Shown here piece by piece: positions 31,501 to 52,400 of a DNA stretch of 64,000 nucleotides; positions within the stretch are counted from its first letter, which is position 1, and the number at the start of each line of letters is the position of its first letter. Origin of the DNA: Halichondria panicea (taxonomy: Eukaryota; Porifera; Demospongiae; Suberitida; Halichondriidae); NCBI RefSeq assembly GCF_963675165.1, contig NC_087389.1, positions 2,080,001-2,144,000 of the forward strand. The letters run 5' to 3'. A model generated the notes under the pieces. It ran no database searches, was not told the DNA's origin, and was given only the letters and a program-made list of their open reading frames with translations. A program made the translations under genes and the position numbers.

Positions 31501-32939
31501 TATATTTCGTGGAATAGCCTCTAAAAGCATTTTGTTGCACATGCAATGTTTACTGCTTACCGGAAGCCATATGCCTTTAATCTTTGCACGTTATAGCAGA
31601 TAATTCTATTTTCGTGGACCTAATTGTAGGATTGGTAACCCACGAAATCAGCGAAAATTAAGCCCCTTGAAAATTTCGCGTCATACGGTATACTCCCGCC
31701 TCTACACACACACACACAGCTGCCAATGTTCTGGTCCAAAAGGAGTGTAGGTGTCGTACTATTCTCCATTGCGAATGTGATAACAAGTACATCATCAATA
31801 TATCGGATTTTGACTCAGCAAGGCAAACCGAATTTTTGCGGAAGCCCAACCAGTTCTCTGTCTGTAAGACAAGCATGAGTGATTATCAAATGTTGTTTGT
31901 GAACGGCACTAAAGGTCACAGGGCTCCTGAGGTAAGTCATATGACATGTTGTTCACTTACTTACAACAGAGTTTAACGTATCATACATGCATGTAGAACA
32001 TTTACATGTGTAGGCCACTTGAAAGTTGTTACCCAGCATCCAAAAATTTGATAAGCAAACATTTAGCCACAAGAAGGCTGTTAGTGTCAGAGGGGTGGGG
32101 CAACGGGCCAGGATGGCAACAACTCAGAGGAGGTTGGACATCACTTGACTTTTCTGCTAATTAGACATGAAATCCTCACGTGATGTAATCATTACCCACA
32201 TGGAAGTTCCTGCATTCTACCTTTTTTTTATGACCTTCTCTGGCATTACAACTGTTAGAACACGTATATATCTTACACGTACCTTAACCTATAGTTGAAA
32301 TTCACTTGACCATGCATCTCGAGTCATAAAAACATCATACTATAGTGTATACCCAGTTACTTAATGCTAAATAAATTATTATGACGGCGCTGATAATAAA
32401 ACACATAATGAACACGGCATTAATTTATGGAATGGGTCCAATTATGTATGTTTTATGCAGCAATTCAAGCAATGTCCATATGGAGCTGCTGAGTATAAGA
32501 AGACGCTGAAGGATGGCAAACCACTCTACGATATGGAAGGTCCATGGTGTGATATCTGGAGTATGGGTGTGATGTTGCTTCAATTAATTCTGGTCAAGGG
32601 ACTTGCTGTTCGTGAGGTATTTTGTTATACTAAGTTAACGTCTTTATATCAGTCACTTAATCGATACACACATAATGCAAAAATTACTATACTACTTGCC
32701 TGCAGGCTGGAATGCTGACTAACTACGAAGGCAACGATATGCATCCCTGTATCGAGCCCATATCTGTAACGGTTTGCCTGAAGGAACTGTTGATGATTTG
32801 CTTGGATCAACCCGAGTTGAACCCTCTTGCTAAAGTAGCAAGTAAATGCCTAATAATTGACTGTACAGAGAGGCCTACAGCTGAAGGAATTCTCAACATC
32901 ATTAATCCTTCCGACTGTAAAGATGGTAGCCATGCGTAG
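28594..32939 (+). CDS. Protein kinase with HSD and DFD motifs, long disordered N-terminus
   Basis: Exons: 28594-29121 and 29894-30274 (disordered, start MSSNLSLSDAQS); about 30385-30524 (GEILGKGGNGKVV-type glycine loop, AVKE lysine); 31091-31387 (αC Glu in KTELNIWSKLQHPNIVLL, then LKYLDQHGIQHSDIK); about 31720-31931 (AANVLV, ISDFDSA, GTKGHRAPE); 32459-32616 (GPWCDIWSMGVMLLQLIL); and 32705-32939. Joins are phase-consistent (IK-A-ANVLV). The fold is a typical Ser/Thr or TKL-like kinase. The catalytic loop reads HSD instead of HRD and the magnesium loop DFD instead of DFG; the Asp residues themselves remain, so activity is possible. An inserted loop between APE and the F helix is unusually long (QFKQCPYGAAEYKK...). 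Two introns hold MITEs. The substrate and pathway are unknown. Confidence 0.82.
30689..31002. repeat. MITE-like long inverted repeat in a kinase intron
   Basis: Left arm (about 30689-30790: GGCCGAGAAGGGTAACCCGC ... GGTTAAACAAAGAGCTGCCA) and right arm (about 30902-31002) are imperfect reverse complements over roughly 100 bp each. The element is about 310 bp with no coding content. Confidence 0.75.
31471..31690. repeat. MITE of the TACCGTATA family in a kinase intron
   Basis: It starts TACCGTGTACCGCGAAATTT and ends AAATTTCGCGTCATACGGTA, with internal TTTCGTGG/CCACGAAA pairs. About 220 bp. Confidence 0.75.
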
Positions 32940-33254: not shown

Positions 33255-35561
33255 CTATAGTGAGATCTGTACAAGGGCTATGGCTACACCCAGAATGGTC
33301 GCTCCAATATGTATCGTATATATGCTAACAGCACCCCCTGGAGTGCCAACAATTTTTTTATAATCCTCAACACTCCACACAAAATCCCCGACCTTGTTAA
33401 TACCATCCGGTGCCGCAACGTGTGCACTCTCGTCGTACTCTCGAATGATGACACCCATCCCCTCGAGCTGATGAGACTCAATGTGGCAGTGCATGAACCA
33501 GTAGCCGGGATTGTCAGCTTGGAAGGCAATCACAACATAACCTCCAGCCGGGACGATCACAGTGTCCTTTTGGATTTTCATATTTATGTTAGTATTGCTA
33601 AAATCTGGTGGCTCTTTTGTAGAATTCCATCGTGGGTTACGGCACAATTCGTTATTGCAGACTACATCACAGTTGCTCTCCAAAAGCATACCAGTACTTT
33701 CATTGTATTTCCCATGTTCTACACTAAGTACATTGAATGAATGTCCATGAAGATGAACGGGATGTGAGAACTCTCTATTATTATTATTTTCATATCCCAC
33801 TGCACTTAGGACAAATATAATGGTTGGAATGTTTTCGCTATCAAACAACGAATTGCCAATTTCCACAACGTAAGTGCATTCACACTTGGTACTATCACTA
33901 TTTTGATCACATTTTCCACAACCTCTCTGTATGTTTTTATCATTTTCGTATGCGTCCACATACGTCTGGTACGGAGTTACTGGGAGTTTGAAATTTCGGC
34001 CATTAATTGCACTAGTGGTCCCACTTCCCTCAAAGCCAAAATTGAAAAATAAAGCAGAACTAGAATTAGCAATGCTCTGAATTTTGGAGGGAAAGAGAGC
34101 ACTTAGTTCATGGAGATGAATACAGTTCATGTCCGGAGCTTCTCCAAATGGGCAATTAACTACTTTGCATTTATTGCCTGGAGTGCATTGCCTTTTTGAA
34201 GTCGAAACACTGCCATACTCAGAAAGACCTTCAACATCAAGCACACCTAGTGCATTATAGTGAAGAATGGCTTCTGCAGCATTTTCAACACCAGTTTCCA
34301 ATGTTTCTGCTCTAATCCAGTAATTATTCGTAGATTGATCAGCAGTTACGATCACATCGTAGCGTTCTCCAGTGTGCACTATAACATAATCGACATCTTT
34401 TACAGGCTTAAAAAAGTGTCCATCTGAAGCTATTACAAGGAGTTTATGTCCATCGATAGAAAATTTGTATGCAAACAAGCTTTGGGCACCAATCAATCGA
34501 AAGCGGTATCTTTGATCTTTGACAACATTGAAAATACTAAGTTTACTAGGTGCGAAACTTGAGTCTACTTTGCGGTGTCTCCCTCTTCCATTTATCAACC
34601 CAGACCAATATGGTTGTGGGCCAACTTCAATATAATCAGAGCTTCTTGTACGAAGATACAGTGTATTAGCACTTGTGGGAATTTCCCCAACAGGTTTGTT
34701 GGGATAAGATCCGAGAGCAGAATGCAGTTGAACAAACAAATTAAGAGAAGATTCCCGTTGCCAGTCAAGAAAAGTCAAAGTGTGTTCTTTTGTCGAATCA
34801 GGGAGCGGCACACCTAATAGAGCTGAAACAAGCTTTCTTTTATCGACACTCTCCTGTACAATAAGTGCTCCAAACAAACCGTCAGTCCTCTGAGCACCAG
34901 CGTGCGAGTGGTACCAATGTGTCCCGGGAGGAGTGGCCTCAAAAATGTATGTAAACTTTGCACCGGGAACAATAGGAGGCTGCGAAATAAAGGCAACACC
35001 ATCCATCCAGGAAGATTTGTTTTGATGCATTCCGTGCCAATGGATAGTAATGCCTTCACTTCTTAAATTGTTGGTAACATTGACCATAACAAGTTGTCCT
35101 TCTGTAACTACGAGGTCTGGCCCCGGGATACGTCCGTTTACGGCAATGAAGAGACGATAGGTACTTCCATCCACAGTCATTGGCATACTACAACTTCGTA
35201 AGGGAAAATCAGACAAGGATAAATGATTATTAATAGAGCAGCGGTGCTGCGAACATTCTGGCAGAGAACGACCATTCATTTCACAATTAATTGATGGTGT
35301 GAATGCATTGTTATCCAAATAGTATGTATGTCCTGGTATGCCTCGAGTCACATCACCATTTTGGAGTTCATAACTGGTGAACGTTTGTAGTTCTTCAACA
35401 TCTAGTTCAAAGGAACACTCAGTGGCACTGGTGCTACATACACACTTCTCTTGTTGATGACCACATCGAACATTTTCAAGTAGACCTTGAGCAAATGTTG
35501 ATAGTAGAAACATAGCATAAATAGCAAAAAGGAGACGTCTGGACTCCATCCTATATTGCAT
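33255..35561 (-). CDS. Laccase-type multicopper oxidase, intronless
   Basis: Laccases oxidise phenols and similar substrates while reducing oxygen to water at a four-copper centre. One uninterrupted 768-codon frame has a signal peptide (YAMFLLSTFAQG), an N-terminal Cys-rich stretch, then three cupredoxin domains. All four copper signatures are present: ITIHWHGMHQ, GTHWYHSHAGAQR, HPVHLHGHSF and WFMHCHIESHQLEGMGV, with Met in the axial T1 position. A hydrophobic C-terminus (IYTIHIGATILGVAIALVQI) suggests a membrane or GPI anchor. It therefore looks active at the cell surface or outside it. The ORF has a nearby in-frame second ATG (MESRRLL) that the truncated copy at 41504 also uses, so the true start may be there. 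There are no introns. A cut duplicate of its 5' half lies at 40480-41504. Confidence 0.92.
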   Translation of the reverse strand: MQYRMESRRLLFAIYAMFLLSTFAQGLLENVRCGHQQEKCVCSTSATECSFELDVEELQTFTSYELQNGDVTRGIPGHTYYLDNNAFTPSINCEMNGRSLPECSQHRCSINNHLSLSDFPLRSCSMPMTVDGSTYRLFIAVNGRIPGPDLVVTEGQLVMVNVTNNLRSEGITIHWHGMHQNKSSWMDGVAFISQPPIVPGAKFTYIFEATPPGTHWYHSHAGAQRTDGLFGALIVQESVDKRKLVSALLGVPLPDSTKEHTLTFLDWQRESSLNLFVQLHSALGSYPNKPVGEIPTSANTLYLRTRSSDYIEVGPQPYWSGLINGRGRHRKVDSSFAPSKLSIFNVVKDQRYRFRLIGAQSLFAYKFSIDGHKLLVIASDGHFFKPVKDVDYVIVHTGERYDVIVTADQSTNNYWIRAETLETGVENAAEAILHYNALGVLDVEGLSEYGSVSTSKRQCTPGNKCKVVNCPFGEAPDMNCIHLHELSALFPSKIQSIANSSSALFFNFGFEGSGTTSAINGRNFKLPVTPYQTYVDAYENDKNIQRGCGKCDQNSDSTKCECTYVVEIGNSLFDSENIPTIIFVLSAVGYENNNNREFSHPVHLHGHSFNVLSVEHGKYNESTGMLLESNCDVVCNNELCRNPRWNSTKEPPDFSNTNINMKIQKDTVIVPAGGYVVIAFQADNPGYWFMHCHIESHQLEGMGVIIREYDESAHVAAPDGINKVGDFVWSVEDYKKIVGTPGGAVSIYTIHIGATILGVAIALVQISL

Positions 35562-36422
35562 GTATGTATGTATGTACTGTTTGTGAGCAGAGAATTAAAA
35601 AATTATTCATTATAATTATTGTTGTGGTTAAAATTAATGTTTTAAATTATATGCACGGCGACTCTTGAAATACGATGCAGTATAGCAGGAAATGTTCGCT
35701 GTTGTAACATTCGCATTTCAATTTCAATGCCAAAAACCACCAACAAGCTTTGTAGACTATATAATTATTATGTGCAAACGTAAAAATATTGGTGCATGCA
35801 TTGGAGTTTCTCCTTTTCGCGTTCAGAACTGCATGCTCTACCACCTACACTAACACAACATGGCGACCCAACCATGCAGGCCATTCACATTTTGAGGTTA
35901 GATCTATAATCACAGTTTTTGATACAATGCAGCGATAATAATTAAGTAACTTACATCAAACAGCAATATACACATGTAATTACCCCATGCAGCTTGCAGT
36001 TTATGTTGCAAACAACAATGAAAAGACTACTATAGTCTACAGTATAGATATAATTATTGTACTCACCTTATTTATAGATACCAAAAATGTATCAATATTC
36101 TGCATAGATTCTACTTTATATACTGTATAGTGCTGGATCACATGATCTCCAGCCAATCAGCTTATCTAGAAGTAGCCAGGTGACCATGCTTTAAATACTT
36201 AATCCACCACACTCAAAGTGCTTTAAGTTGCTGGGATGAGGCTACTTTATACCTCACACTGCCAGGAGTGCATGAATTCATGAACTTCTGATCACACTTA
36301 TAGCTAGCAGTAAGTGTTTTTAATGTGTACATGAGGATGATGCTACTGCTCTCGTTGAGTAACGGCACAAGCGTAGTGAGTGCATTACGTAACCATGAGC
36401 ATTATTGCATCATCCAAGTGCA

Positions 36423-36594
36423 CCAGCATTAAAACATGTTGGCTAGCTACAAGCTGTTATCGCACAACTATTCTTCATCATAATTATTTTAAGTCATCCA
36501 TCTCAAAAGCCGGTGCATGAAGCTATAGGTAGCTTGAATAGGGTCTTCAGCTTCGTGATCAGCACTTAGCTAGCCAACGTTTTTTTTAATGCTG
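36423..36594. repeat. Small inverted-repeat element
   Basis: CCAGCATTAAAACATGTTGGCTAGCT on the left pairs with AGCTAGCCAACGTTTTTTTTAATGCTG on the right, about 27-bp imperfect arms around a 120-base centre. Confidence 0.65.
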
Positions 36595-38716
36595 AGTTGA
36601 TGGATGTCATTGGCTGTAGGTTACATGATCAGCAATAAGTTAGAACACACCTACAATAGTGTTTTAATCTGTGTGGAGGAAGGACTCGATGTTAAATAAC
36701 GTGATGCTTTTTTACCAATTGAGGCATTGAATGAATATATCCATGCAGGTACAAAACTGGTTTAACAGGTCAAGCTGTCCAAATTGCAGGTTACATGCAC
36801 GTACACGAAGCTGGAGATTATACATGACATCACTAAAATTCTTTGGAACACACCTAGCCAAAATCATGTGTTTTGATGCTATATAGTGCACTCGGATGGA
36901 CTCTCGGTTACTATAAGCACTCGGCGCATTGAGTCCATCCTCGATTGGCACACAGATTATAAATTAAAACTTGGCGAGGTGTGCTCTAAATAATCATTGC
37001 ATGGAATCAATGCACCCACCATAGATATATATAGGCCCATAAAATTTCCAAGCAGACATCTATAGCTGAAATGCATGCATTCTTTATAATATGTAATAAC
37101 CATGCCTGGCTGTCTCAATTATATTCATGAGGTCAAATTTTTGGGGGTCATGCATGCAAAACTTTTGTAGTTGATATAATAATAATATAGCCAGTTTGTG
37201 GATATTATTTTGTGGTTGCTGCGGCAAAGGTATATAGTCAAGGTCGTCTCATTTGTGGGTAAAATATTCGTGCTCAGAAATTCTACATGAAATGTTTGCC
37301 CCCTATAAATTACCCATGAAACTGTACACGATGAATAAGTAAGGTATAGCGAATATATATAGGGGACCTGTTACCAAAAGCTGCTGTGAAAGCCAAGACA
37401 AGCTTTGCCAATTAGCATGCTTCAGCCAATGTCCTCTACTCTTTCCCCTTCCCTTCCTTTCCCATATTACTCCTATAGGCCTATATATACTGCATGTCTT
37501 CCTCTTTCTTTACACATTTTCCCCCACTAACCCCACACTCTACTCTTTCCCCTACTTTTGGGGGTTTCCAAATTAGGAAAGAGACAATCTAGAGCCTCGA
37601 AGACTACATTGAAAGTGAAAAATTTACAATGTCTCAACATGGCCAAACGCACATGCATATACCCTATGGTTGCAATAATAAACTGATAGTAATGGAGTAC
37701 CGATAAAAGAATTATTACTTATAGGTAAATTAATTAAGTTTGGGAATAGATAGAGTATCAAGTTAATAGACAATTAAGTTTCAGAGGAAATTCTGAAGCA
37801 AATGGTATTATATATATTTGGGAGAGCCTTTACAATTATACAAGCTAGAACATGCATTAGATTTAGGATGTTCACTTATGAGGTTTGTACATAATTATAA
37901 TTGTATAGAATGTATGAACCAAAATTACACCCACTAATAATTATAAGTACACAAAAGGGTGCTTTCCCAGGGAATTTTACAAGACAAAAATGGTGCTTTC
38001 CCAGGGAAGTTCCAAGCAGGAGTGCTACTAAGTGCCTGCACTTAGAACACCACAAATGTAATTATAACAGATGTTTAGACTTAATTATTACTGGTCTCAT
38101 TGGCCATGCATGTACAGTTTTGCCTCCTTGGAAACCTTTCATTCCACAAAGAAATGGCACTTTTTCTTTTTCATTAAATTTCTGGCAGCGCTTTTGCCCT
38201 TTCCCTGAATAGTTTTCTGGCTGAAGGCTTAATTACTGAGGATCCAATTAAGGAAATTCAACACTGTCAGCATGCTGGTATTATAATTGGATAGATCCCT
38301 GCTGAGTGCTGACTCTGTTCTGAGATTTTTCCGATGTGGTTTTCCGATGTGGTTTTCCTTTGATGCTCATGAATACAGGATATACACATTATGGTAAATG
38401 TCGTGTATATATATATATAGCAGGTAATTTTCATTGTAATGTTTTCATTGTTATGTAGCCCATAAAATAACCAATACCAACCCATCTTGTTCACGTACTC
38501 TTTGTGTTTGAGCGGCGGCTCATCCAACCCTAGCTACTAACCCTAATTTTTCAAAAAAAATGGTTTTCGCACTTGTACACTTTACTTATATAGTTAGCCA
38601 TGGAGATCTTGAGAATTTGAGTCCAGAATAAGCCTGGACTAAGCAAATGACCCAAAGTCATATCACCTTGTAAAATAGTGTACTACCTCACAGTTGCCAT
38701 GCAGTATTAACACTGA

Positions 38717-39110
38717 TAAGAGAAGAGTGTCGAACTACTGATACCTCTTCACAAAAACTGTGCACAAAGTAACATGACTCTCATGTGATGAGTATTGTAG
38801 TAATCTTCAAGTAAATGTTAACCGTGACAATTTTAGGGGTGTGGTAATTGAATAAAAACAGTTTGCGTTCAACGTTCAGAGCTGCTCACTGCACACTAGC
38901 TGATAGGAGACGATCTCTTCACAGAAATCATCTAAATAGAGACAATAGTCGGGTTGATCCTCTTCACTTGCACTGTTTACTCACTGTTAACAAATTCTGT
39001 GCGTTGCGCAAACATTGAGAGTTGCTCACGTGCAATTGACAGGATGCCACGTTACTTATTGCGTAGTTGTTGTGTAGAGGTATCGGTAGTTCGACACTCT
39101 TCTCCTCTTA
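38717..39110. repeat. MITE with long terminal inverted repeats (394 bp)
   Basis: The left end TAAGAGAAGAGTGTCGAACT ACTGATACCTCTTCACA is mirrored on the right as TGTGTAGAGGTATCGGTAGT TCGACACTCTTCTCCTCTTA. Arms are about 40 bp with few mismatches. The centre is non-coding. Confidence 0.75.
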
Positions 39111-39224
39111 TAATTATATTCTGGATAATAGTATAGCAATCGTCATCATTACAAACATGAAAATCATTGGTAAATACAGTACTAAGTATAGCCGTCAATC
39201 ATGATTGTGCTGTTGACACACACA

Positions 39225-39905
39225 CCTTGTTGTTTCCCCGTGAGAGAAAGTGGATGTCCCCGCGGTGATGGACCCAGCTGGCATTCCACACCATGCACAT
39301 GCATCGCTGAATGTGTTCAACACCTATAGGAGGGATAGCAATACAGTGTGATTGTATACAAATTTAATTATAGGAAACAAGTTCTGCCAAACTTTAAGAA
39401 CTGTTAAGGAATTTAATATAATTATAGCACAAGCATATACACGATGGTCACAATATCTCACACTTTCATTCTAACAACACACAATATCCTTATATACGTG
39501 TGAGCAATGGGCCACTCTACTACAAGGCAGCCCTACACTGGGACACCAGGCCACGTCCCTCACCCAGTCATGGTGAGCCTCCAGTTTCTCACTAAACACG
39601 GGCCATGCATCATTCTCATAATGCCTATATAATTACGTGAACAGTGTAGGGGTTGGTAGAATGTATAAATCTATTGATGTGTGAGATCGAGAGTCCCCAT
39701 GTCAATACAACTCCTTTGATAAAGTAATGAACGAAAGTTAGCTATAGGAAATATAAAGTGACTCAACCCGTACTATATCTTGTATAATTATATAGGTATG
39801 CTTCTAGTTCCTCACCTCTAGGTTGTCTTCTCCCCTGTGACCATGCACTCTTCATGCACACCTTCACAGAACTATAGACCTACCCTGCAACAAATAGATC
39901 TATCA
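39225..39905 (-). pseudogene. Truncated SEC13 copy (3' exons only)
   Basis: Three blocks match SEC13 exons and their flanking introns in the same order and strand. 39230-39345 matches the exon at 43604-43690 and its intron; 39470-39625 matches the exon at about 44795-44910; 39825-39905 matches the exon at about 46605-46675 plus intron bases. Reading frames are decayed by small indels. Homology stops after the last block, so the copy never contained the 5' half of SEC13. It pairs with the truncated laccase next to it. Confidence 0.8.
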
Positions 39906-40131
39906 ACACTCAGCACACGAAAAAAACAAAAAAACAGTCATGCATGCTGGCAACAATATTAAAGCAAGGTAGATTCTAATATAATATATGCACATCACTG
40001 ATGTAACCAAATTATAACCATGCACACTACACATGATGTGTGGAACCATTCTCTAGTATCTATGCATGGTGGAACTAGAATGAAATACAGAGATACATTT
40101 CAACTAATGATATACATTTCAATGCACAAGG

Positions 40132-40341
40132 TACCGTATAGCGGGTAATTTTCGGGGGACAAAATATTCGTGGTTCAGCAATATTGAGACATTTCGTGGG
40201 TAATATTTTCGTGGTTGGAGCTTGCACTGCAGGTAAAGGTAGGCAAGGTCGCTTCATTCGTGGGTAAAATATTCGTGGTTAGACCTCCAACCACGAAAAC
40301 CAAAAATATTTTGCCCCACGAAAATTACACGCTATACGGTA
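40132..40341. repeat. MITE of the TACCGTATA family
   Basis: The best-preserved copy in the window: TACCGTATAGCGGGTAATTT at the left and CCACGAAAATTACACGCTATACGGTA at the right, with repeated 'TCGTGGGTAAAATATTCGTGG' units inside. It sits in the 575 bp between the truncated SEC13 and laccase copies, beside the duplication junction. Confidence 0.85.
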
Positions 40342-40479
40342 TACACATGTACATGCAAAGGTTTAAAGTTCAACAAAATTATGTCAAATTTGAAATGAGG
40401 GGTTGACTTTTTATGCTTGTGATCAGTATAGAGACAAATTGATAATAAAAGACATGCACTGCATGCAGGAAAAGATCAC

Positions 40480-41504
40480 CATTCATTGCAGGTCGTAGAA
40501 TTAATATTTCCCTCACATGAGTCTACATTGCAGTGTCTCCCTCTTCCATTTATCAACCCAGACCAATACAGCTGTGGGTGGCCAACTTCATTACCATCTG
40601 AGCTTCTTGTACGATTATACGATTCATTGCTGCGTGTGGGAATATCGCCAACTGGTTTGTTTGGATAAAATCCAAGAGTGGAATGGAGTTGAACAAACAA
40701 GATTCCCGTTGCCAGTCAAAGTGTGTTCTTTTGTCAAAATCAGGGAGCGGCAGGCCTAATAGGGCTGAAACAAGCTCTCTTGTATCGACACTCTCCAGTA
40801 CAATAAGTACTCCAAACAAACTGTCAGTCCTCTGAGGACCAGCATGTGAGTGGTACCAATGTGTCCCAGCTGGAGTGGCCTCATGCAAATATGTATGTAA
40901 ACTCTACTGCACCGGGGACAATAGGAGGCTAGGTAACACCATCCATCCTGGGAGATTTTCTTTGATGTATTCCATGCCAATGGATTGTAATTCCTTCACT
41001 TGTCAATTTGTTGGTAACCTTGACAACAACAATTTGTCCCTCTGTAACTACGAGGTCTGGTCCCGGGATACGTCTGTTTAGAGCAATGAAGAGACGGTAT
41101 AGGTACTGCCATCCACAGTCATTGGGAGGCTGCAGCTGGGTAGTTCTTGAGAAGTATATAGGTATAGAAGGATTAAAACGATATCCGCGAGCAGTTTCCA
41201 CATTCAGGGACTTTAGCAGTATAGGGCAGTTAATCGAAGGAGTGAGCTCATTCCCTTCCCAGTAGTAGGTATCTCCTGGTGTGCCCCGAGTCACAATCTC
41301 TCCCTGTGCCGGTGTCAAGCGTGTAACTGGTGAACATTTGCAATTCTTCAACATGTAACACTCAGTGGCACTGCTACTGTAGACACACTTCTCTCTTGCT
41401 GATCTGCACATGCAAGTGACATAATGACGATCGGGTTGACCTTGAACAAAACTTGATAGCATAAACAGAGTACAAACAGCAAAAAGAAAGTGTTTAGACT
41501 CCAT
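40480..41504 (-). pseudogene. Truncated, decayed laccase copy (5' half only)
   Basis: The frame starting at 41504 (MESKHFLFAVCTLFMLSS) matches the intact laccase from its second Met through IHWHGIHQ. The reading then shifts to other frames, which show THWYHSHAGPQRTDSLFG and INGRGRHCNVDS. Homology ends near the laccase position equivalent to 34,550, so the second half with the last two copper sites is absent. Several small indels break the frame. The 5' flank TGTATGTATGTACTG is shared with the intact gene, as expected for a DNA-level duplicate rather than a retrocopy. Confidence 0.85.
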
Positions 41505-41944
41505 CCTGTGTATGTATGTACTGTGACGAGCAAGAAAACAATTTCTGTTTTATACCCTGTAATTTCCAGGAATTCTAAAGCTATATCGGATGGAAAGATC
41601 AGTCGTGAATAATTAGAATTATTATTACCATAGATACCAACATGAACCTATTGACCTCTATAAAAGACACCTTTATTGGAACTGCTTTAACTAAATTATG
41701 AAACAAATCGATATATGACGTTACAGTTCTGGAGCAAAAAGGTACTGCGTAAACAACAGAATCATACGCGCCACTTACACCCACAATATATACTCCTGTT
41801 ATAATTAGTCATGAGTCACTAAATTGTCTCACTTTTTAAATGGAAATCATAACAGGAGCCAATAGACAATGCTATTGACTCATACAGGAGCCAATAAAGA
41901 CAATGCTATACAGCATTCCCATCCCCTTAGAAACAGCTAACAAA

Positions 41945-42285
41945 CTTTTGCTGTAAAGGGGTGGGTTTATTTTCACTTTCTCCTTTATGTATAATTTTGT
42001 TACCATCTTACTCAGTAATTGCATTTCTTGGAAGCCAGGCTCCATTATTAATTTGTTATACACTTTGGGGGATAAAATAGCATGCATATAGGTACGTAGC
42101 TGCTATCAGCTGCTTATAATATTTTTTATATACATCATAAATTTCACAATAACCCCTCACCCCCCCCCACTGTACAAGGCCAAAAAAATTAATAATGGAG
42201 CCTGGCTTCCAATTACTGAGTAAGATGGTAACAAAATTATACATAAAGGAGAAAGTGAAAAAAGCCCACCCCTTTACAGCAAAAG
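41945..42285. repeat. Near-perfect foldback, arms of about 115 bp
   Basis: The left arm (CTTTTGCTGTAAAGGGGTGG ... GGAAGCCAGGCTCCATTATTAATT) is repeated in reverse complement with only a handful of differences, ending CACCCCTTTACAGCAAAAG. A partial further copy of the same arm (CCCCTTTACTGAGTAAGATCG) follows at about 42323-42385. High arm identity implies a recent event or gene-conversion between the arms. Confidence 0.85.
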
Positions 42286-42636
42286 GCTAATAACAAGTGA
42301 TGGTTCCAATAAAAGCAAACCACCCCTTTACTGAGTAAGATCGTAACAATAATAATTGACTACATAAAACGAGAAAGCGAAAGTTGAATGCACTTCACAC
42401 TACATACATGTACATGTACCGTACCATCTGATGATAATAATGATATCGGTGTAGGCGCCAAAGCTTTATGGCAATTGTAATAAATAAATTGTGGCAAATG
42501 TCACTTTTTTACCTGATATTTGTATGTACTTGTGTGTGAAAACCACACATCATTTTTACAGTGTATTAATTATTAATGGTTGCAAGCTCATAATTATGGT
42601 GCAGCTTTGCAGCTGTTTTCTTACTCTTGCAGGCAC

Positions 42637-42845
42637 TACCATATAGCGGGTAATTTTCGTGAAGTAAAATATTCGTTATTTTCGTGGGCAAGCTGACCTC
42701 CACGAAAATTTAACGTAGGCATGGCTTACCGGAACGTAGGAATGCAGTGCAGGCAACGAGACTAAACGAAATTTTTACTCACGAAAACCACCGTTTCTCG
42801 AGTTGAACGAATTTTTTACCCCACGAAAATAGCAAGCGTTATAGT
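42637..42845. repeat. MITE of the TACCGTATA family
   Basis: TACCATATAGCGGGTAATTT at the left and CCACGAAAATAGCAAGCGTTATAGT at the right, more diverged than the copy at 40132. Confidence 0.7.
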
Positions 42846-43369
42846 GCAGAGCTAACTACTAAGTAGAATACCTAAGTTAGATTTTAAAGAGTCGCAACGG
42901 CTTTCAAAGTAAGCAAACTTAGCCATAACTCGAGAACGAAGCATCAATCCAATAAAACATTGAAAACATGACTAAAAGCCTACAGAAACTTATTTTATCA
43001 TCGGGCAGCTGTAGCAGTCTACACAGACACACAAACACACTACCGTACACCTCACTCCGCATGCGCAACCGAGGCATAACAATGGTGAAGGTAATCGGCT
43101 GAACAGCAAAAATATCTACTGTACACTGCAGTAACCTCTCAGGTATACACTTTGTACGATTGCAAATTGGCCAGAGTTATAATCCACTTTAAAGATAAAC
43201 ACGGGTCACACAAAAAGTAACTTATTTTGACAGGAGGAAATTGGAATAAATTCTGAAGAGATGTACATGTACCAGTGATATAATTAATAAGCACAAACGT
43301 ACAACAGTAACTGCAATTGATTCCATAATAAACGAGTAACATAAGAATGTCCCTATAGTGAATAATTTA

Positions 43370-46300
43370 TCATTGTGTTTGTTGTTGCACCTGCTGTCCT
43401 TTGTCTACCTCGCTCACACACACCCACTGACCCTCAGGCGTCTCCTTCCACAGGGTCACCTGCACACGGGGAAGAGCAATAAGTGGCAGTAATGATAGAA
43501 TTGTACACTAGAGTTAGTAGCCATCCTAGTATGTGCCATAACTAGTATGCCGAAAATTTTCACTTCACTTCATTCCATATATGAAAACTGTAAGCACACC
43601 CACCTTGTTGTCTCCGCCCGAGATGGCGAGGATGTCTCCGGTGATGGACCAGCTGGCATGCCACACTACATCATTGAATGTGTTTAACACCTACAGGAGG
43701 GATAGCGATACGGTGTGATTGCATATACACAGACAACACAGACTCAGCATTACTACTGCACATGTAGGAAACAAGTTTTCTGCCATACTAATACAACTAG
43801 CAGTAAATGAGACAGACTATGAAGCACAAGCATACATGGGACTAAACATCAGAACATAATTATCGTATAGCGGGTACGTTTCGAGGGTATAAATGTTCGT
43901 GGTTTTCGCTGATCAAACGTCTACCCCGAACATTTACCACGAATTTACTATCGCATGCATGCATGCTGCAGAAAGGCTGCTATTCTGGAAAATTAAATCC
44001 GCGAAAACCTTTCTAATGGTCATTCCGCGAAAGTTTATACACTCGAAATATACCTGCTATACGATACACAATCCAATGTAACATGCCATGTGAAGTACAA
44101 GCTAAAAATAATCATACACTAACAATGATTGTGTTTAAGCATGTAGTCACAATACCAACCAATTAGTCACATACATGTACTCGGTGTGCGCATGCGCAGC
44201 AAGGTATACGGTACTGTGTTTGTGTATGTGACTGCTCAAGAGTCAAATAAATAATGTATAAATTGCAAGTAAGAGCTTCTATATAAGCACTGGAATTCCA
44301 TTTGTGGATTTGCAAAATATTGCTTCATTCTCAAGTTACCCCTAGTTTTGCTCACTTGCTATTCTACTTAGCAGTTAGCTCTGCATTAAAACGCTAGGTA
44401 GTGATAGCTGCAAGAAGGAGAAAAAGAGCAGCAAAACTGTGTTGTTTCATGAGTAGCAGCCATTAATTAAGTATGGACTAAGAAACATTTTAGCAACTAT
44501 CATGGTTGATCATTTCCCATATGCAGCAAATGTAAACAATTTTGTACATCATCACAACTGTATGTATTTAATAGCTAGTAAGCTTCATGTAGCTTTGATG
44601 CATCAATCGAGGCAAAGTGGGTGCTTTTTATGTAGTATATTGGATGTACAACGTTATTTATCACAAAAATGCACTCACGGCTGAAGCCCATGAATCTCCT
44701 GAATTCTCATCTTTGGTCCAGATGATAACCTTACAGTCCTGCAGATGGTCACAATATAACAATTTTCATTTCCACACTACACAACATCTTACCTGTGAGC
44801 AACTGGCCACTCTACTACGAGGCAGCCCTACACTGGGACACCAGGCCACGTCCCTCACCCAGTCAGTGTGAGCCTCCAGTTTCTCACTAACCCACGCCTC
44901 GTTCTCCTCCCTAGGTGGAGAGTGAAGGGGATGGTAGAATATAAGTACCAGTTGTGTAGAGACGTTCCACAGCTACATGTACTAACTTTAGAGGTTGTGC
45001 TAGAAAACAAGCAACCACTATTATGTATCAGGAAGTAAGGTATTTGTTACCCAAGGCGCATGGGTGCCCACGGGTATAGTAGTACGTTGGTTTGTTTGTG
45101 TGTAACTACTCATCTGGATGCCATAGCGTTGCGTTTACAGGATGGATAGCCTCTACATAAGTTAGTTTTAAAAGTGGCAGATTTTGATTCGTTGTCAAAT
45201 AAAAGCTACTTACACGTTGGCTGCATGGCTAGCTAGATACCAGAGGAGGCTGGAATGAACCACCTGGCTAGCTACATGTACATGCGTCCTTTATTCGAGG
45301 TACGTATTTTATAGCTGCAGTGATCCCGTACCAGGAACAAAGGAACAGGGTCACTAAAGTAGAGAGCTAGAATTATGATTGTTGTTGCATCTTTCCTCAT
45401 TCTAGTTTCTTTGCTGACTTTGCTGTGATCCTATTTGGCTCCAGAGCCCTCAGCAGAAATGTTCGTGGGTTCTAATATTCGCGTTTCAATGCCAAAAAAC
45501 CACACCCACTTTGCATGTTACTAGCCTCGGTCCCAGGCCGATTTTTTTTAATAGAACGAAGGTGAAAAATACGGCCTGGTATTGATTGTATCTGGGCGTG
45601 GCAGGAACCAGAAACAAAAGCAGAGATTCTTCACATTTTGTTTCCTGCTTTTTTTCTGTAATACTAAAGGTGTACGTAGAGGCATTTACTCCCGTAAAAG
45701 TTACAGTAATGTAGCTCCGTGTCATGTTCTCATTTATAGCTAGCTAGCTATGGCATGCAACGCGTTGTCTTGTTTGAAGCAAGATGGCCTCACTCTCATG
45801 GCAGAACAAGCCCAGGCTCTCAAGCTCCTGTTTGAGGGAAGGGACGTGTTTATCTGGTTCCCAACGGGGTATGGCAAGTCTCTCTGCTATATCAGTTGCT
45901 ACCCTTTTTAATGGACTACAAGCTAGGTAGGACCAAGGCTCCTCCTGTTGACAAAAGTGTTGTTCTTGTTAATTGTCTCTCCCCTTGTATCTCTCATCAT
46001 GAGACTCATGATTGACCAGGTCAGGAGTCTAAACGTGTTTCTGCTGCCATCCTCAGTAGCAATAAAGGAATCGACAAAGATTTGGTAGCCACTGCCAAAG
46101 AAGTGTCTTCTGGGAAGTATTTCCTGCTGTATACTGCCCCAGAGGCTGTTGTTGAAGACCACCACTGTTGGAGGATTCATTTTTTGTTGTACCACAGAGT
46201 CAATTTGTTTTATGTATTAAAAAACCACGCCCAGATCACGCCCAAATACAATCAATACCAGGCCTAGTAGGCAACCTAGCGTTCAATTGGAGACGAATCG

Positions 46301-47945
46301 GCCTGGGGTCGAGGCTAGTGAAGTACCAGTGTTTGGGAGTTCATCCCAGTTTTAAATTTTGCGTCTTTTGTCTGCCCTTGAAAACACAAAATTTTGCACC
46401 TCACAAACATTTCCCGCTGTACGGTACCACTAAAACTCGTTCTCAAAAGTTTCAGCATGCCTCCACATGCCTCTAGCTCTGTTATTTGCTGCTTAGCCAG
46501 CATTTATTCTTTTAAAGGTTGTTATAGATCTTTATTATGTCAACAGCTGAGGGTTAGCACTGCAGTGCTCTAGACAGCTGACACTTAGGTAAGCCTCTCA
46601 CCTCCACACTCTGACCAGGTTGTCTCCGCCTCCAGTGACCAGCCTTTTCACGGCACTAGACCCTTTAGAACCACCCTGCAACATACAACGATGTCAACAT
46701 TCGGCACATGGAAAGAGGATAAACATTGTAACAAGCAAGCACGGCACACACTTCCCTGGTATGTGCAGTAACTGCATTAATTCTAACCACAGTACACTGA
46801 CCAACAAGGTAACTACACAAACGGACACACTTACAATGCAGAGTAACAAGTTCCTTGTGACTCTATACAATCATTGAGCTAGCTGCTTACAGGGAATGAA
46901 ATGTCTACACGCTAGAGAGAGTAACTGACCTCCACTAGAGAGCCAGGGTTGAGTGCAGGTGCCCAGCTGATGGCATTGCAACCAAGCTGTGAACAGACAG
47001 AGTAGTCAGACACTTTGCTAATGATAGGTGCACATTATACTCAACGTACCGTGTGAGCATTCTCATGCTGTTGATACTTCCAGTTACCGTCACCTGGGGA
47101 GCAAGCAATGTTAGAGTACAGCCACAACACAGTATTATACAAATAGATATGTGCAATACCGCATTTTGGTAAATACAGCATATAAACGTGACAATCCCAC
47201 TTGATCTGGGACTGCTCTCAAATAGGAAGGGCGGACTTCTTAAACTCAGTACCGTGGTGCTAGAAAGTTTTGATCGATTTTAAGGCCACAAAAACATTAT
47301 AATTTTATGCAATTAAACTTGCACGCTGTGACTTCAATGGGGACTAGAATGAATTGTGCGATACAAACGAAAGTGAGCAGTTCGCTTAAATAGCATTACC
47401 GTATATCTTCTAATTTATCGGACACTTCTAATTACCCGGACACTCTTTTGGGCAATTTTCGTTGTTCTAATACAACGGACACTCCAGTACTTTAATATTA
47501 CATTTGTTCTAAATATCCGGACAATACCTTGAAAAGTTGAGTTACCATTCATAGACGGCAAGTAAGACTTAGAGTGCTGCAGTTAGATAGCCTTTGAGTA
47601 GCTAGTTTTAGATAGCTAGTGCAACTATTCAGTCGTACCCTGTTCTATTAAACTTAGCTAACTCGCATGCAGCTGCTTGCTTGTTCTAATTATTCCGGAC
47701 ACTTCGCATGCTCTATAAAAGTCTGTTCCAATTATACCCGGACAATTTCCAAAATAATTATTTTTTGCTGTCCGATAAATTAGAAGATATACGATAGTTA
47801 GTATCGTACATTAATTTCTAGCACTACGGAATCACCATAATTATAGTAATTTCTCTGACCTGATGTTGATATAATAGAGAATGATTCGTCGGATGAGGCG
47901 CATGCCAGAACCAGGCCGTACTCGTGGGGACCCCATTGGATGCTA

Positions 47946-48012
<67 letters not shown>

Positions 48013-49119
48013 GGGGGGGGGGGGGTAAAGTACATGGGAATCCTCAATTAGAGTGTATAGGAGGATTCAGGGTGTTATAAGGGTGATATCCCTGGCTTAA
48101 TTCTTCCCTCTCTAAAATTTGCATTTAGGTACTAGAGAAATTACATATATGACTGAGAACTGAGATGCACGGAAAAATCTAAACTTTAATGCAAAGGCAA
48201 CCCCAAAACCCACCAGAATTCACTTACGACTACCTAAATATTTCGGGGGGAGCATGTCCCTGGACCAGTCAGCGACACACTCCACAAACCCTATTCTCCC
48301 CCTACTTCAAAATCCTGTATGACAGGGTCCCTATGTACATGTATATATAGTACCTGACGACTTGTGCTCACAGAACTCGTACAGTTTTCCCCAACTGCCA
48401 TTAGTCTCCTTCCAGATAATAACCTGGGAAACAGATGAGAGCTGTTTAATAACAGAGCTTGGTGGAGGGATTAACAGTAAAAGTACGATTCTTAAGCGTT
48501 AATACTTATATAGCAGTACCTTACCTTTCTATCATATGAGCAGGAGGCCACTATATTCCCAAACTTAGGATGTGCCCATGCCACTTGCCACACTGGACCT
48601 TCATGGCTGCACAAACATACAACATACAATCATAGTTGCCTTTAAATTCACTGCATATGGACATACGTTTATATGGACAGTTTCGAAAAACCTGTGTATA
48701 AAACTACCATGGACCACAGCTAGAACTGACTTTGATGTACCAATTCTCAACTTCATACATGTAGCACACAATAAACTTACCCCACTAGAGTGGCGACCAA
48801 GTTTTGGGTGTTATTAACTATCTCGAATATCCTAACAGTACGATCGGAGGAACAGGTGGCTAACTTCCTCCCATAGTAGTCCAACTGGGCATCATGCTGC
48901 ATGGGGTTGTATATAGTTGGGACACCAAGTGGATAGAAGACACAATATCAATAAATTTGAAATTTATAACGTTGTCAGTATGTCAAATGAGAACGTTTAC
49001 ACTCTGCACTAGTGGCAGCTACCGTATAAAATGAGGAAGCATTGAGTGTGTTGTGCTCTTACAATCATGTCATCATGCCCAGTATCCACTGTACTCTGTA
49101 ATGACACTGATCCTGACAT
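43370..49119 (-). CDS. SEC13: SEC13, COPII coat and nuclear-pore WD40 protein
   Basis: SEC13 is a six-bladed WD40 propeller that pairs with SEC31 in COPII coats and with NUP145/NUP96 in the nuclear pore Y-complex (family knowledge). Start ATG at 49119 ([19 protein letters not shown]). Following exons read [20 protein letters not shown] (about 48780-48900), [20 protein letters not shown] (about 48525-48600), [20 protein letters not shown] (about 48355-48423), [20 protein letters not shown] (about 47860-47945), [13 protein letters not shown] (about 47050-47095), [16 protein letters not shown] (46931-46988), [16 protein letters not shown] (about 46605-46675), [18 protein letters not shown] (about 44795-44915), [14 protein letters not shown] (about 44685-44745), [20 protein letters not shown] (43604-43690) and [20 protein letters not shown] (43370-43459, stop TGA). 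This covers human SEC13 from end to end. Introns are enlarged by inserted elements. A 3'-only duplicate lies at 39225-39905. Confidence 0.93.
43861..44066. repeat. MITE of the TACCGTATA family in a SEC13 intron
   Basis: Ends TATCGTATAGCGGGTACGTT and CTCGAAATATACCTGCTATACGATA form matching inverted termini; about 206 bp. Confidence 0.75.
45055..45440 (-). repeat. Dispersed repeat copy in a SEC13 intron
   Basis: This shares blocks in reverse orientation with 50815-51215. Examples are GATCCCGTACCAGGAACAAAGGAACAGGGTCACTAAAGTAGA (split by small gaps in the other copy) and the 'GGATGGATAGCCTCTACATAAGTTAGTTTTAAAAG...CAGATTTTGAT' block. Related pieces are at 54755-55005 and 58335-58470. No coding content. 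Confidence 0.65.
45530..46320. mobile_element. Inverted-repeat element carrying a helicase fragment
   Basis: The ends CTAGCCTCGGTCCCAGGCCGAT (45531 on) and ATCGGCCTGGGGTCGAGGCTAG (to 46318) are inverted. Internal blocks TACGGCCTGGTATTGATTGTATCTGGGCGTGG and CCACGCCCAGATCACGCCCA...ATACAATCAATACCAGGCC also pair, giving terminal repeats of about 80-90 bp. Inside is a RecQ-like helicase fragment. The element sits in a SEC13 intron and shares its end sequence with the small palindrome at 4447-4486. Confidence 0.7.
45750..46165 (+). pseudogene. RecQ-like DNA helicase fragment
   Basis: The frame from ATG 45750 reads [20 protein letters not shown] and then the Walker A string [11 protein letters not shown], the pattern of RecQ-family ATPases. 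Other frames continue [18 protein letters not shown], then SPL-SLM-DQV-like residues, and later [20 protein letters not shown], which matches the expected order of RecQ motifs I to II. At least two frame changes and a stop break it, and no helicase C-terminal or RQC domain follows. It is a decayed fragment rather than a gene. Confidence 0.75.
47251..47829. repeat. Outer inverted-repeat element split by a second MITE
   Basis: ACCGTGGTGCTAGAAAGTTT at 47251 and its inverted counterpart ATTTCTAGCACTACGG ending at 47829 bound the element. A different inverted-repeat element (47400-47793) lies inside, close to the right end, so this is a nested insertion within a SEC13 intron. Confidence 0.7.
47400..47793. 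repeat. Inner MITE with 25-bp perfect terminal inverted repeats
   Basis: CGTATATCTTCTAATTTATCGGACA at the left is matched exactly by its reverse complement at the right (47769-47793). The interior repeats short TTCTAAT-TACCCGGACA-like units several times in both orientations. Confidence 0.85.
47950..48026. repeat. (TG)n microsatellite followed by a G run
   Basis: About 30 TG units (47950-48010) run straight into about 15 Gs. Such tracts are Z-DNA and slippage prone. It lies in a SEC13 intron next to the exon at 47860-47945. Confidence 0.9.
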
Positions 49120-49414: not shown

Positions 49415-52400
49415 ATGTCCAGTTTCTTCTTACCTTCCAAGAGCAAGTCCAGAGACAAGAAAGCCAAAAAGCAACAGAAATTGAAGAAGGTAGATCTAAT
49501 GGTTGTCTAGTCCACCACTTGAGGCTGGCTTGCCTACAATGTATAATATTTAAATAGATATAAAATGAGACAAGTGTTTTATGACAGGCACAAGCGTAGG
49601 CGAGTTGCCATAAAACACATGAGAATCCTCAATGTATATTGTGTTTTATGTTTTATATCACGGCGACCATTACCAATCGTGCCTCGTGGCTACACGACGT
49701 GTAATCATCATAACACGGACTGTATGACTTTTATCAGGAGTACATTAAGATGTACTCTTGCTTTTATTATGTACTGATGGCTCTTTTTTAATAAATTATG
49801 TAGAAACAGGATGGCAAGACGTCTGCGACTGGTGCAAAACGGAAAAGAAGGCCAGAGACATTTAATGAAGAGATAGAAAGTGATTCAGAGGTCGAAGGGT
49901 GAGCTATAGTTCAATCTGTTGATAACTGTATTAAACCACTGTCGTGCATGCATGCTATAGTGATGATGTCAGGAAGGGTTTAACAGCTCTCAGCTCAGAG
50001 GACGAGTATGATGTGGAGACTGCTCCAGAGAAGAGGCTGCGGCTTGCCAAAGAGTACCTTTCCAATCTACAGGAAGAAGGTGAGGAGAGTGATAGAAAAA
50101 TTGGGGTTTCTGGTTTTGTATTGTGATCCTTGATCCGTAATCTAAATACACTATGCAATAGAGCTCCCCTATTTTACACTCAATGTGAGCAAGCAAAACA
50201 GAGTTCACAATTAAATTCTATAATTTATGACATTGCTGTGCTGGTGTATTTGGCCTACAGAAAGAGCCAAGACCGATGATGCTGACTTTGACCAAGATGC
50301 AATTGCACATCGCTTAAGAGATGACATGGTAAGTGTATTCAAAAATGTATAATGCAATTTCGTTATAATAATAATCACAGTTGGAGCAAGCTGGAAGGTT
50401 GCAAAGAAAAGTTGCTGATAAGGTATAAATGGTAATGAGTGTATCCAACACTTTGTTTGTACTCCATACATTAGTACGAATTTTGTTGGTTGTATTGATA
50501 ACGTCATATTATCATTATGCTCCACCCGGACAGTACATTGCCCCTGATCCTGGTGATATTCGTAAGCTGAGAGGCCATCGACTGCCGGTGACTTGTGTGG
50601 TCGCCACACCCGACGATAAGTATGTCTACTCTGGAGCAAAGGACTGTTGCATCATCAAGTGTAAGTTACACCATGTCCATACTTACAAGTGGGTATGTGA
50701 TATTTAAACATCGTTTACTTCAGGCTGCTCTGGTTATCAGTACTGTAGTGCTGCAAAGTTAATTCAAGTTTATCACACATCATAATTATATATACCGTGG
50801 TTCAAATCCGTTGCATTGAAGTGCTAACCCTCCGCTGTTGAGATGAATAAAGATCTATATACCAACCAAAAGAGTGTTATACAATAAATGCTGGCTAAGC
50901 AGCAAGTAACAGGATCTAGAGGCTGATCAGGATAAGCAAAGAAGCAACAACCACAATCATAATTAATTTTATTTCTACTTTAGTGACCCTGTTTCTAGTA
51001 CGGGATCACTTCAGCTGTAAATACGTACCTCGAATAAAGGCCATGTGTAGCTAGCCAACCGTGCAGCCAATGTGCAAGTTCAATCTTAGCTTTTACTTGA
51101 CAACAAAGCTTTAACATCGAAATCTGCTACTATTAAAACTAACAACTAGTTGTGTAGAGGCTATCCATGCTGTAAGTACAGTACTATGGCATCCAGGACG
51201 AGGTGAGTAGACTCAGATGTCACAAATAAACAAACAAACGAACTTCTACCGTATAGTGGGTAATTTTCTGGGGGCAAAACATTCGTGGTTGCTGCTTGCA
51301 CTGCAGGTAAGGTAAGCAAAGTCGCTTCGTTCGTGGGTAAAATATTTGTGGTCAGAGCTTCAACCACAAAAATTACTCGCTACATGGTATAACCCGTGGC
51401 TGCTAATGACAAAGTACAAGCCTTACTACCAGCCTTATTACGTTTCCAACTATTGCAGTTGCATGCGAAACTGTAATCGCAAGAGCTCACTCTTTGCGTG
51501 TATTTCCTTTGGAATCTATGCAAAAACTAAATTCGCAATCGAAAGAGCCCCGCATTTGAAACCCAGCATACGGTACTCATATTTCACTTTTCTTTCGTTC
51601 AAGTGAGCGTCATTTACCAATGCAACATGCACTCAATACCCCCCCTACCCCCACGCACATACAGGGCTGGTAGAAACAGGAGTGAAGGAGGTGATATTCT
51701 CTGGCCACAGAAAGGGTGTGGAGGGAGTAGTGGGACACACTGGTCACGTCCTCGCTCTGGCTGTCAGCTCGGATGGGAAATTCCTAGTAAGCGTCCTCAC
51801 ATGCAACCAGCATAATTTTTTCATTCAGAAACTGCCTGCTTGACTCCAGTGCTCGGTGTATGCACATATGTACATTGCATGTGCGAGCATTATTTTGGTT
51901 CTATTGTAGCGGCCACAGTTGTGCTTTAACGAGCCTTGATATGTCTTTTCACATTCAGGCAAGTGGTGGCCAGGACAGAGTTGTTCATGTTTGGGACGTC
52001 AAGACCAACTCTCATGTACACACATTCACAGGGCACAGGGACACTGTCTCTGTGAGTGCTTACATGTACCTTTGTTTACATTTTGTACGGAAGCATTGTC
52101 TAATGTCCCTTATTGAAGATGTTTTATTGGAGGTTCTATATACTCTACATTTTGACTGTTCGTTTTGTTTTGGAATATGGTATATATATAATTATTGCTT
52201 CTTCTATTTTCCAAGCTGGTTAATGCCTTTGAAAAAGTTGTCATTAGTTTAAATATGTAGAAGGACGGCTTATGTGTAATAAACTGAATATACATTGTAT
52301 ACTAATTGCAGGGGCTGTCCTTCCAAAGAGGCACTCATGAGTTATTCAGCTGCTCTTTTGACAGGACTTTGAAAGTATGGAACCTTGATGAAATGGCCTA

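What the first reader, a model, noticed from the sequence alone, without database searches (positions are those of the whole stretch)
33255..49119. One tandem duplication with breakpoints inside both laccase and SEC13
Order along the sequence: whole laccase, SEC13 3' exons, laccase 5' half, whole SEC13, all on the minus strand. The truncated SEC13 stops just past the exon matching 46605-46675. The truncated laccase starts at the position matching about 34550. This is exactly what a direct duplication of the segment from mid-laccase to mid-SEC13 gives: one whole and one stillborn copy of each gene, with no need for separate losses. The junction must lie in 39905-40480, where a MITE (40132-40341) now sits. 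The two copies are 5-6 kb and differ mainly by inserted elements.
Basis: partly seen in the sequence, partly recalled or inferred. Interest (0 to 1): 0.72.

Follow-up and report, generated by a model that had tools for sequence, protein, structure and literature searches.

The report
Two broken gene copies, not one duplication
Between an intact laccase gene and an intact SEC13 gene of an animal genome lie broken pieces of both, but the broken laccase is closest to a laccase on another contig rather than to its neighbour, so this looks like ordinary decay of gene copies made in several steps and not one neat duplication.

Summary
The layout is real: whole laccase L1 (33255-35594), SEC13 fragment SEC13a (39210-39947), 5' laccase fragment L2 (from 40519), whole SEC13b (43370-49119; 12 exons, 314 aa), all minus strand. 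The missing halves were not found, and the broken ends face each other across 39.95-40.52 kb, where a TA-flanked MITE sits. The one-step explanation fails its main prediction. L2 is 92% identical (929/1007) to an intact laccase on contig C15 and 78% (774/994) to L1. L1 carries 165 private substitutions against 43 for L2; a stillborn copy should have at least as many as its parent. Against my reading: an AU test does not reject L1+L2 (p 0.083), and silent-site dating of SEC13 is inconclusive. Best reading: several steps, namely an older laccase duplication, a SEC13 duplication, an L2-type gene on C15, then deletion of the facing halves of SEC13a and L2. A partial tandem duplication from a C15-type parent that has since left the locus is not excluded. 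Low interest.

The parts
33255..35594 (-). L1, intact laccase / multicopper oxidase ORF (779 aa stop to stop, one open frame)
   Evidence: Cu-oxidase_3, Cu-oxidase and Cu-oxidase_2 domains; phmmer to ascorbate oxidase and laccases, E down to 6e-53
39210..39947 (-). SEC13a, SEC13 pseudogene fragment: relics of exons 8 (degenerate), 9 and 11 with short intron flanks; exons 10 and 12 and the exons 1-7 not found
   Evidence: blastn blocks, alignments, tblastn of exon peptides
39948..40518 (.). junction between the broken ends; outside the MITE no homology to either gene was found, and 39948-40131 and 40342-40530 found only themselves in the genome search
40132..40341 (.). MITE-like element with 44-bp inverted ends (89%), TA at both ends, inserted in the junction
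40519..41550 (-). L2, 5' half of a laccase, frameshifted pseudogene; best match is an intact laccase at G000:C15:5068170-5070494
   Evidence: homology start 40519 = 34561 in L1; 13 indels in the coding part against C15, 9 of them not multiples of three
41551..41830 (.). 5' flank of L2, homologous with many gaps to the 5' flank of the C15 laccase
   Evidence: blastn to 41681; score 126.5 against a shuffle maximum of 8.5 over 41540-41830
43370..49119 (-). SEC13b, intact SEC13 gene, 12 exons, 314 aa

Best explanation
The segment is a decayed duplicate cluster built in several steps. L2 belongs to a laccase lineage that had already separated from L1; the intact member of that lineage now lies on contig C15. 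SEC13a is a pseudogene of the neighbouring SEC13b. Because the missing halves of SEC13a (5') and L2 (3') would lie next to each other, one deletion, or overlapping deletions, across 39.95-40.52 kb most likely removed both after a fuller laccase-SEC13 tandem duplication, and a MITE-like element entered the scar. Shown: the layout, L2 nearest to C15, absence of SEC13 exons 10 and 12 from SEC13a, frameshifts in L2. Inferred: that L2 was once whole at this place, that one deletion took both halves, and the order of the steps. No function is proposed for the fragments.
For: Up to the break, L2-C15 929/1007 against L1-L2 774/994 identical; site patterns L2=C15 165, L1=L2 21, L1=C15 43, p 5e-18 for 165 against 43 (the first count had 59 because it ran 16 sites past the break). 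Leaving out the first 500 alignment columns: 47 against 17, p 2e-4. Four-fold sites differing: L2-C15 6/134, L1-L2 26/104, p 5e-6; L1-C15 24/115 against L2-C15, p 7e-5. Rooted tree joins L2 and C15 with support 95/99, and L1+C15 as a clade is rejected at p 0.017. L2 and C15 share up to about 290 bp of 5' flank. C15 is a whole 775-aa ORF. SEC13a has lost an internal exon (10) and the last exon (12), so deletions have acted there. The broken ends face each other; the C15 3' half finds in the genome only itself, L1 and four weaker places on C7. The one weak intergenic match would fit an old tandem duplication.
Against: The AU test does not reject L1+L2 as one clade (p 0.083), the outgroups are distant and the program warns that long branches meet. 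A full tandem duplication should leave more intergenic identity than one weak 74-bp match. Silent divergence of SEC13a-SEC13b (4/25) fits both the L1-L2 and the L2-C15 value (p 0.43 and 0.052), so the laccase and SEC13 duplications cannot be shown to be one event. No SEC13 relic was found within the 30 kb fetched around the C15 laccase. The genome search with the L2 flank did not find the C15 flank.
Confidence: 0.55

Rival explanations
1. One partial tandem duplication as the reader says in mechanism, but from a C15-type laccase that then stood between L1 and SEC13; that parent was later lost here and survives on C15.
For: Explains order, orientation, the shared junction and L2-C15 closeness. 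Four-fold divergence of SEC13a-b (4/25) is above that of L2-C15 (6/134) only at p 0.052.
Against: No relic of a second laccase is seen in 35.6-39.2 kb (window against itself; window against C15); exon 12 and nearly all of the intergenic part are missing from copy 1.
Confidence: 0.2
2. One partial tandem duplication of the present L1 and SEC13, later masked by gene conversion of L2 by the C15 gene.
For: Layout and facing broken ends; L1+L2 as a clade has AU p 0.083; a weak collinear 74-bp intergenic match.
Against: No L1-like patch remains in L2: the L2=C15 pattern outnumbers L1=L2 in 10 of the 11 windows of 100 columns before the break (4 against 5 in the other); the similarity to C15 runs on into the 5' flank; private changes are 165 in L1 and 43 in L2.
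Confidence: 0.08
3. L2 is a fragment of the C15 laccase with its 5' flank inserted between two SEC13 copies, independent of an internal SEC13 duplication.
For: L2 closest to C15; SEC13a covers only exons 8-11 without exon 10 and not the 3' end; an 80-bp piece like SEC13a exon 11 lies on C5, so small pieces do disperse.
Against: Needs the insert to land in the same order and orientation as L1-SEC13 by chance; I did not define insertion ends.
Confidence: 0.13

Closest known systems
Partial gene duplicates with breakpoints inside ORFs (review PMC3449122, passages read)
   Same: Truncated paralogs without homology beyond the break; the passages say that partial duplicates are frequent in worm and fly and that duplications across two adjacent genes were observed directly in D. 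melanogaster.
   Different: Here the truncated laccase's nearest relative is not the neighbouring gene, so truncation by later deletion is the more likely cause for it.
Local clusters of laccase / multicopper oxidase genes in the same genome
   Same: Of 14 places matching the Cu-oxidase family, four lie within 16.6 kb on C9 and two pairs lie 33 and 56 kb apart on C7.
   Different: In the window a SEC13 fragment lies between the members and one member is half gone.

Membership tests
Single partial tandem duplication (L1/SEC13 parent) | Collinear order and orientation of both copies | tested here: met
Single partial tandem duplication (L1/SEC13 parent) | Truncated copy is nearest to the neighbouring whole copy | tested here: not met
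   L2: C15 92%, L1 78%; tree 95/99, though AU p 0.083 for L1+L2
Single partial tandem duplication (L1/SEC13 parent) | Intergenic sequence duplicated too | tested here: inconclusive
   no blastn match; one weak 74-bp match above 200 shuffles; divergence may have erased the rest
Single partial tandem duplication (L1/SEC13 parent) | Copy 1 holds SEC13 from the break to its 3' end | tested here: not met
   exons 10 and 12 not found; later deletion could explain it
Single partial tandem duplication (L1/SEC13 parent) | Both gene pairs equally old | tested here: inconclusive
   SEC13 four-fold 4/25; L1-L2 26/104; L2-C15 6/134
Multicopper oxidase (laccase) for L1 | Three Cu-oxidase Pfam domains above cut-off | tested here: met
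SEC13 for SEC13b | Full-length match to solved SEC13 | tested here: met
   residues 5-308 of 314, E 1.9e-137

The most novel reading that the evidence does not exclude
The stretch is a place where gene pieces are exchanged between chromosomes: L2 pairs with C15 and the exon 11 piece of SEC13a pairs with C5, each closer than the neighbouring parent gene, so dispersal of fragments rather than local duplication would have shaped it.
Probability: 0.08. Interest if true: 0.4.

Novelty: new member of a known kind. Interest (0 to 1): 0.18.

Why it matters
It is a worked example of how a tidy tandem-duplication story read from gene order alone can be overturned by one genome-wide comparison; for the animal itself it only adds two gene relics.

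Tried and rejected
Assembly of two haplotypes: not testable without reads; the divergence (22% L1-L2; 14/120 and 15/90 bases in SEC13 exons 9 and 11) makes it unlikely. Mobile element carrying the C15 laccase between inverted repeats (near 5067.5 and 5071.5 kb): rejected, because the repeat belongs to a dispersed family (2442 first-look candidates, of which 40 were scored). L1 made different by conversion from another laccase: no donor seen, since the six other laccases in the tree are 40-53% identical to L1; the six laccase matches not in the tree were not compared. Dating by SEC13 silent sites: inconclusive. Gap-free identities from the loose aligner are not informative, as shuffled sequence gave 84-87%; only its scores against shuffles were used. 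By those, the L1 5' flank scores 3.2 against the C15 flank (maximum of 30 shuffles -1.3, so a trace is possible) and -10.0 against the L2 flank (maximum 1.7). SEC13 intron flanks, L2-C15 5' flank and L1-C15 3' flank were all alignable, so flanks did not separate the ages. Windowed dN/dS failed in 4 of 10 windows. The stretch 39948-40131 had a weak match to 45588-45627 (6 of 200 shuffles as good) and none elsewhere in the genome search. Paper search on sponge laccase: 30 papers hold the terms, the 10 listed were not to the point by title; searches listed 8 and 5 papers, of which passages of one (PMC3449122) were read.

The first structure search, with stops read as X, found nothing; exon peptides then matched. 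The first SEC13b splice had one wrong exon start and was corrected.

Full report
What is there. On the minus strand lie, in order, an intact laccase ORF L1 (33255-35594; three multicopper-oxidase domains), a SEC13 fragment SEC13a (39210-39947), a laccase 5' fragment L2 (from 40519), and an intact SEC13 gene SEC13b (43370-49119), which splices into 12 exons with GT-AG introns and a 314-aa protein that matches solved SEC13 over residues 5-308 with E 1.9e-137. A strand-specific comparison finds four collinear blocks between the left and right halves; on the opposite strand the best of three matches is at E 4.1.

SEC13a. Alignments and exon peptides find relics of exons 8 (poorly preserved), 9 and 11, with short intron flanks. 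Exon 10, and exon 12 with the stop codon, are not found (which use an older numbering in which these are e9 and e11). Homology stops just beyond exon 11 on one side and in the intron upstream of exon 8 on the other. Thus the fragment as it stands does not reach the SEC13 3' end, as a copy running from mid-SEC13 into the laccase should unless it was later cut.

L2. The homology to L1 begins at 40519, matching 34561. A genome search with L2 gave three places: itself, C15:5069448-5070488 at 87% and L1 at 75%. The C15 place is an intact 775-aa laccase. In a three-way alignment cut at the break, L2-C15 is 929/1007, L1-C15 837/1037 and L1-L2 774/994 identical; sites at which two agree against the third are L2=C15 165, L1=C15 43, L1=L2 21. 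The uncut alignment gave 165, 59 and 21, with 16 of the 59 lying beyond the break. Against C15, L2 has four deletions and nine insertions in the coding part, 9 of the 13 not multiples of three.

Why this contradicts one step. If L2 were born truncated from L1, it would have changed without constraint since then and L1 under constraint, so L2 should carry at least as many private changes as L1. It carries 43 against 165 (p 5e-18); with the first 500 columns left out, 17 against 47 (p 2e-4). At four-fold sites L2-C15 differ at 6/134, L1-C15 at 24/115 and L1-L2 at 26/104. A tree of 9 rows joins L2 with C15 at 95/99; the AU test rejects L1+C15 (p 0.017) but leaves L1+L2 open (p 0.083), and the program warns of long branches. 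The tree holds 8 of the 14 laccase matches plus L2; six were left out by choice: three further members of the C9 cluster (L007, L008, L019), L020, L021 and L024. L2 and C15 share 5' flank up to about 290 bp (score 126.5, shuffle maximum 8.5); L1's flank scores 3.2 against C15 (shuffle maximum -1.3) and -10.0 against L2 (maximum 1.7). The coarser genome search with 41540-41830 found only itself and missed the C15 flank.

Other tests of the one-step model. The intergenic stretches show no blastn match. Of five 400-base chunks of the right-hand one, four scored like their reverse-strand controls; one gave 42539-42612 with 35733-35806, score 22 against a maximum of 19 in 200 shuffles, forward and collinear, A+T-rich and beside a dispersed repeat. 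This may be a trace of common origin and counts for some tandem duplication. Neither laccase 3' half nor SEC13b 46741-49119 matches the junction better than shuffles, and its two parts outside the MITE found only themselves in the genome search. The MITE-like element at 40132-40341 has TA at both ends. Silent divergence of SEC13a-SEC13b (4/25 four-fold sites in exons 9 and 11) fits either date, so equal age of the two gene duplications is neither shown nor excluded.

Reading. The most economical account that keeps order and orientation is a fuller laccase-SEC13 duplication, or a laccase pair plus a SEC13 duplication, with the L2-type gene copied to (or from) C15 and a later deletion that took the facing halves of SEC13a and L2. 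The direction of copying between C13 and C15 is not known. Partial duplicates and duplications across two adjacent genes are documented (PMC3449122, passages read), so the kind is known.

Noticed in passing
window 39203-39282; G000:C5:6269610-6269686: An 80-bp piece on contig C5 is 89% identical to SEC13a around exon 11 (79% to SEC13b over 73 bases) and shares with SEC13a changed residues near the end of the exon; it looks like a dispersed copy of the pseudogene piece.
   Followed up: partly
window 47951-48010: A 60-bp perfect TG repeat runs right up to the 3' splice site of SEC13b exon 5 (exon 47860-47949).
   Followed up: no
window 42637-42831 and 42835-43090: A high-copy MITE (query 42500-43590: 3560 first-look candidates, 40 scored) and an adjoining dispersed repeat (2442 candidates, 40 scored); copies of the latter also lie on both sides of the C15 laccase in opposite orientations.
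   Followed up: partly
L003 and L004 (L1 and the C15 laccase): Identity between L1 and the C15 laccase swings from 50% to 97% in 150-column windows along the gene, as gene conversion or uneven constraint would give.
   Followed up: no
window 51791-52252 and 31052-31603: ORFs that look by eye like a WD-repeat protein (plus strand, near SEC13b) and a protein kinase; named from recall, not searched.
   Followed up: no
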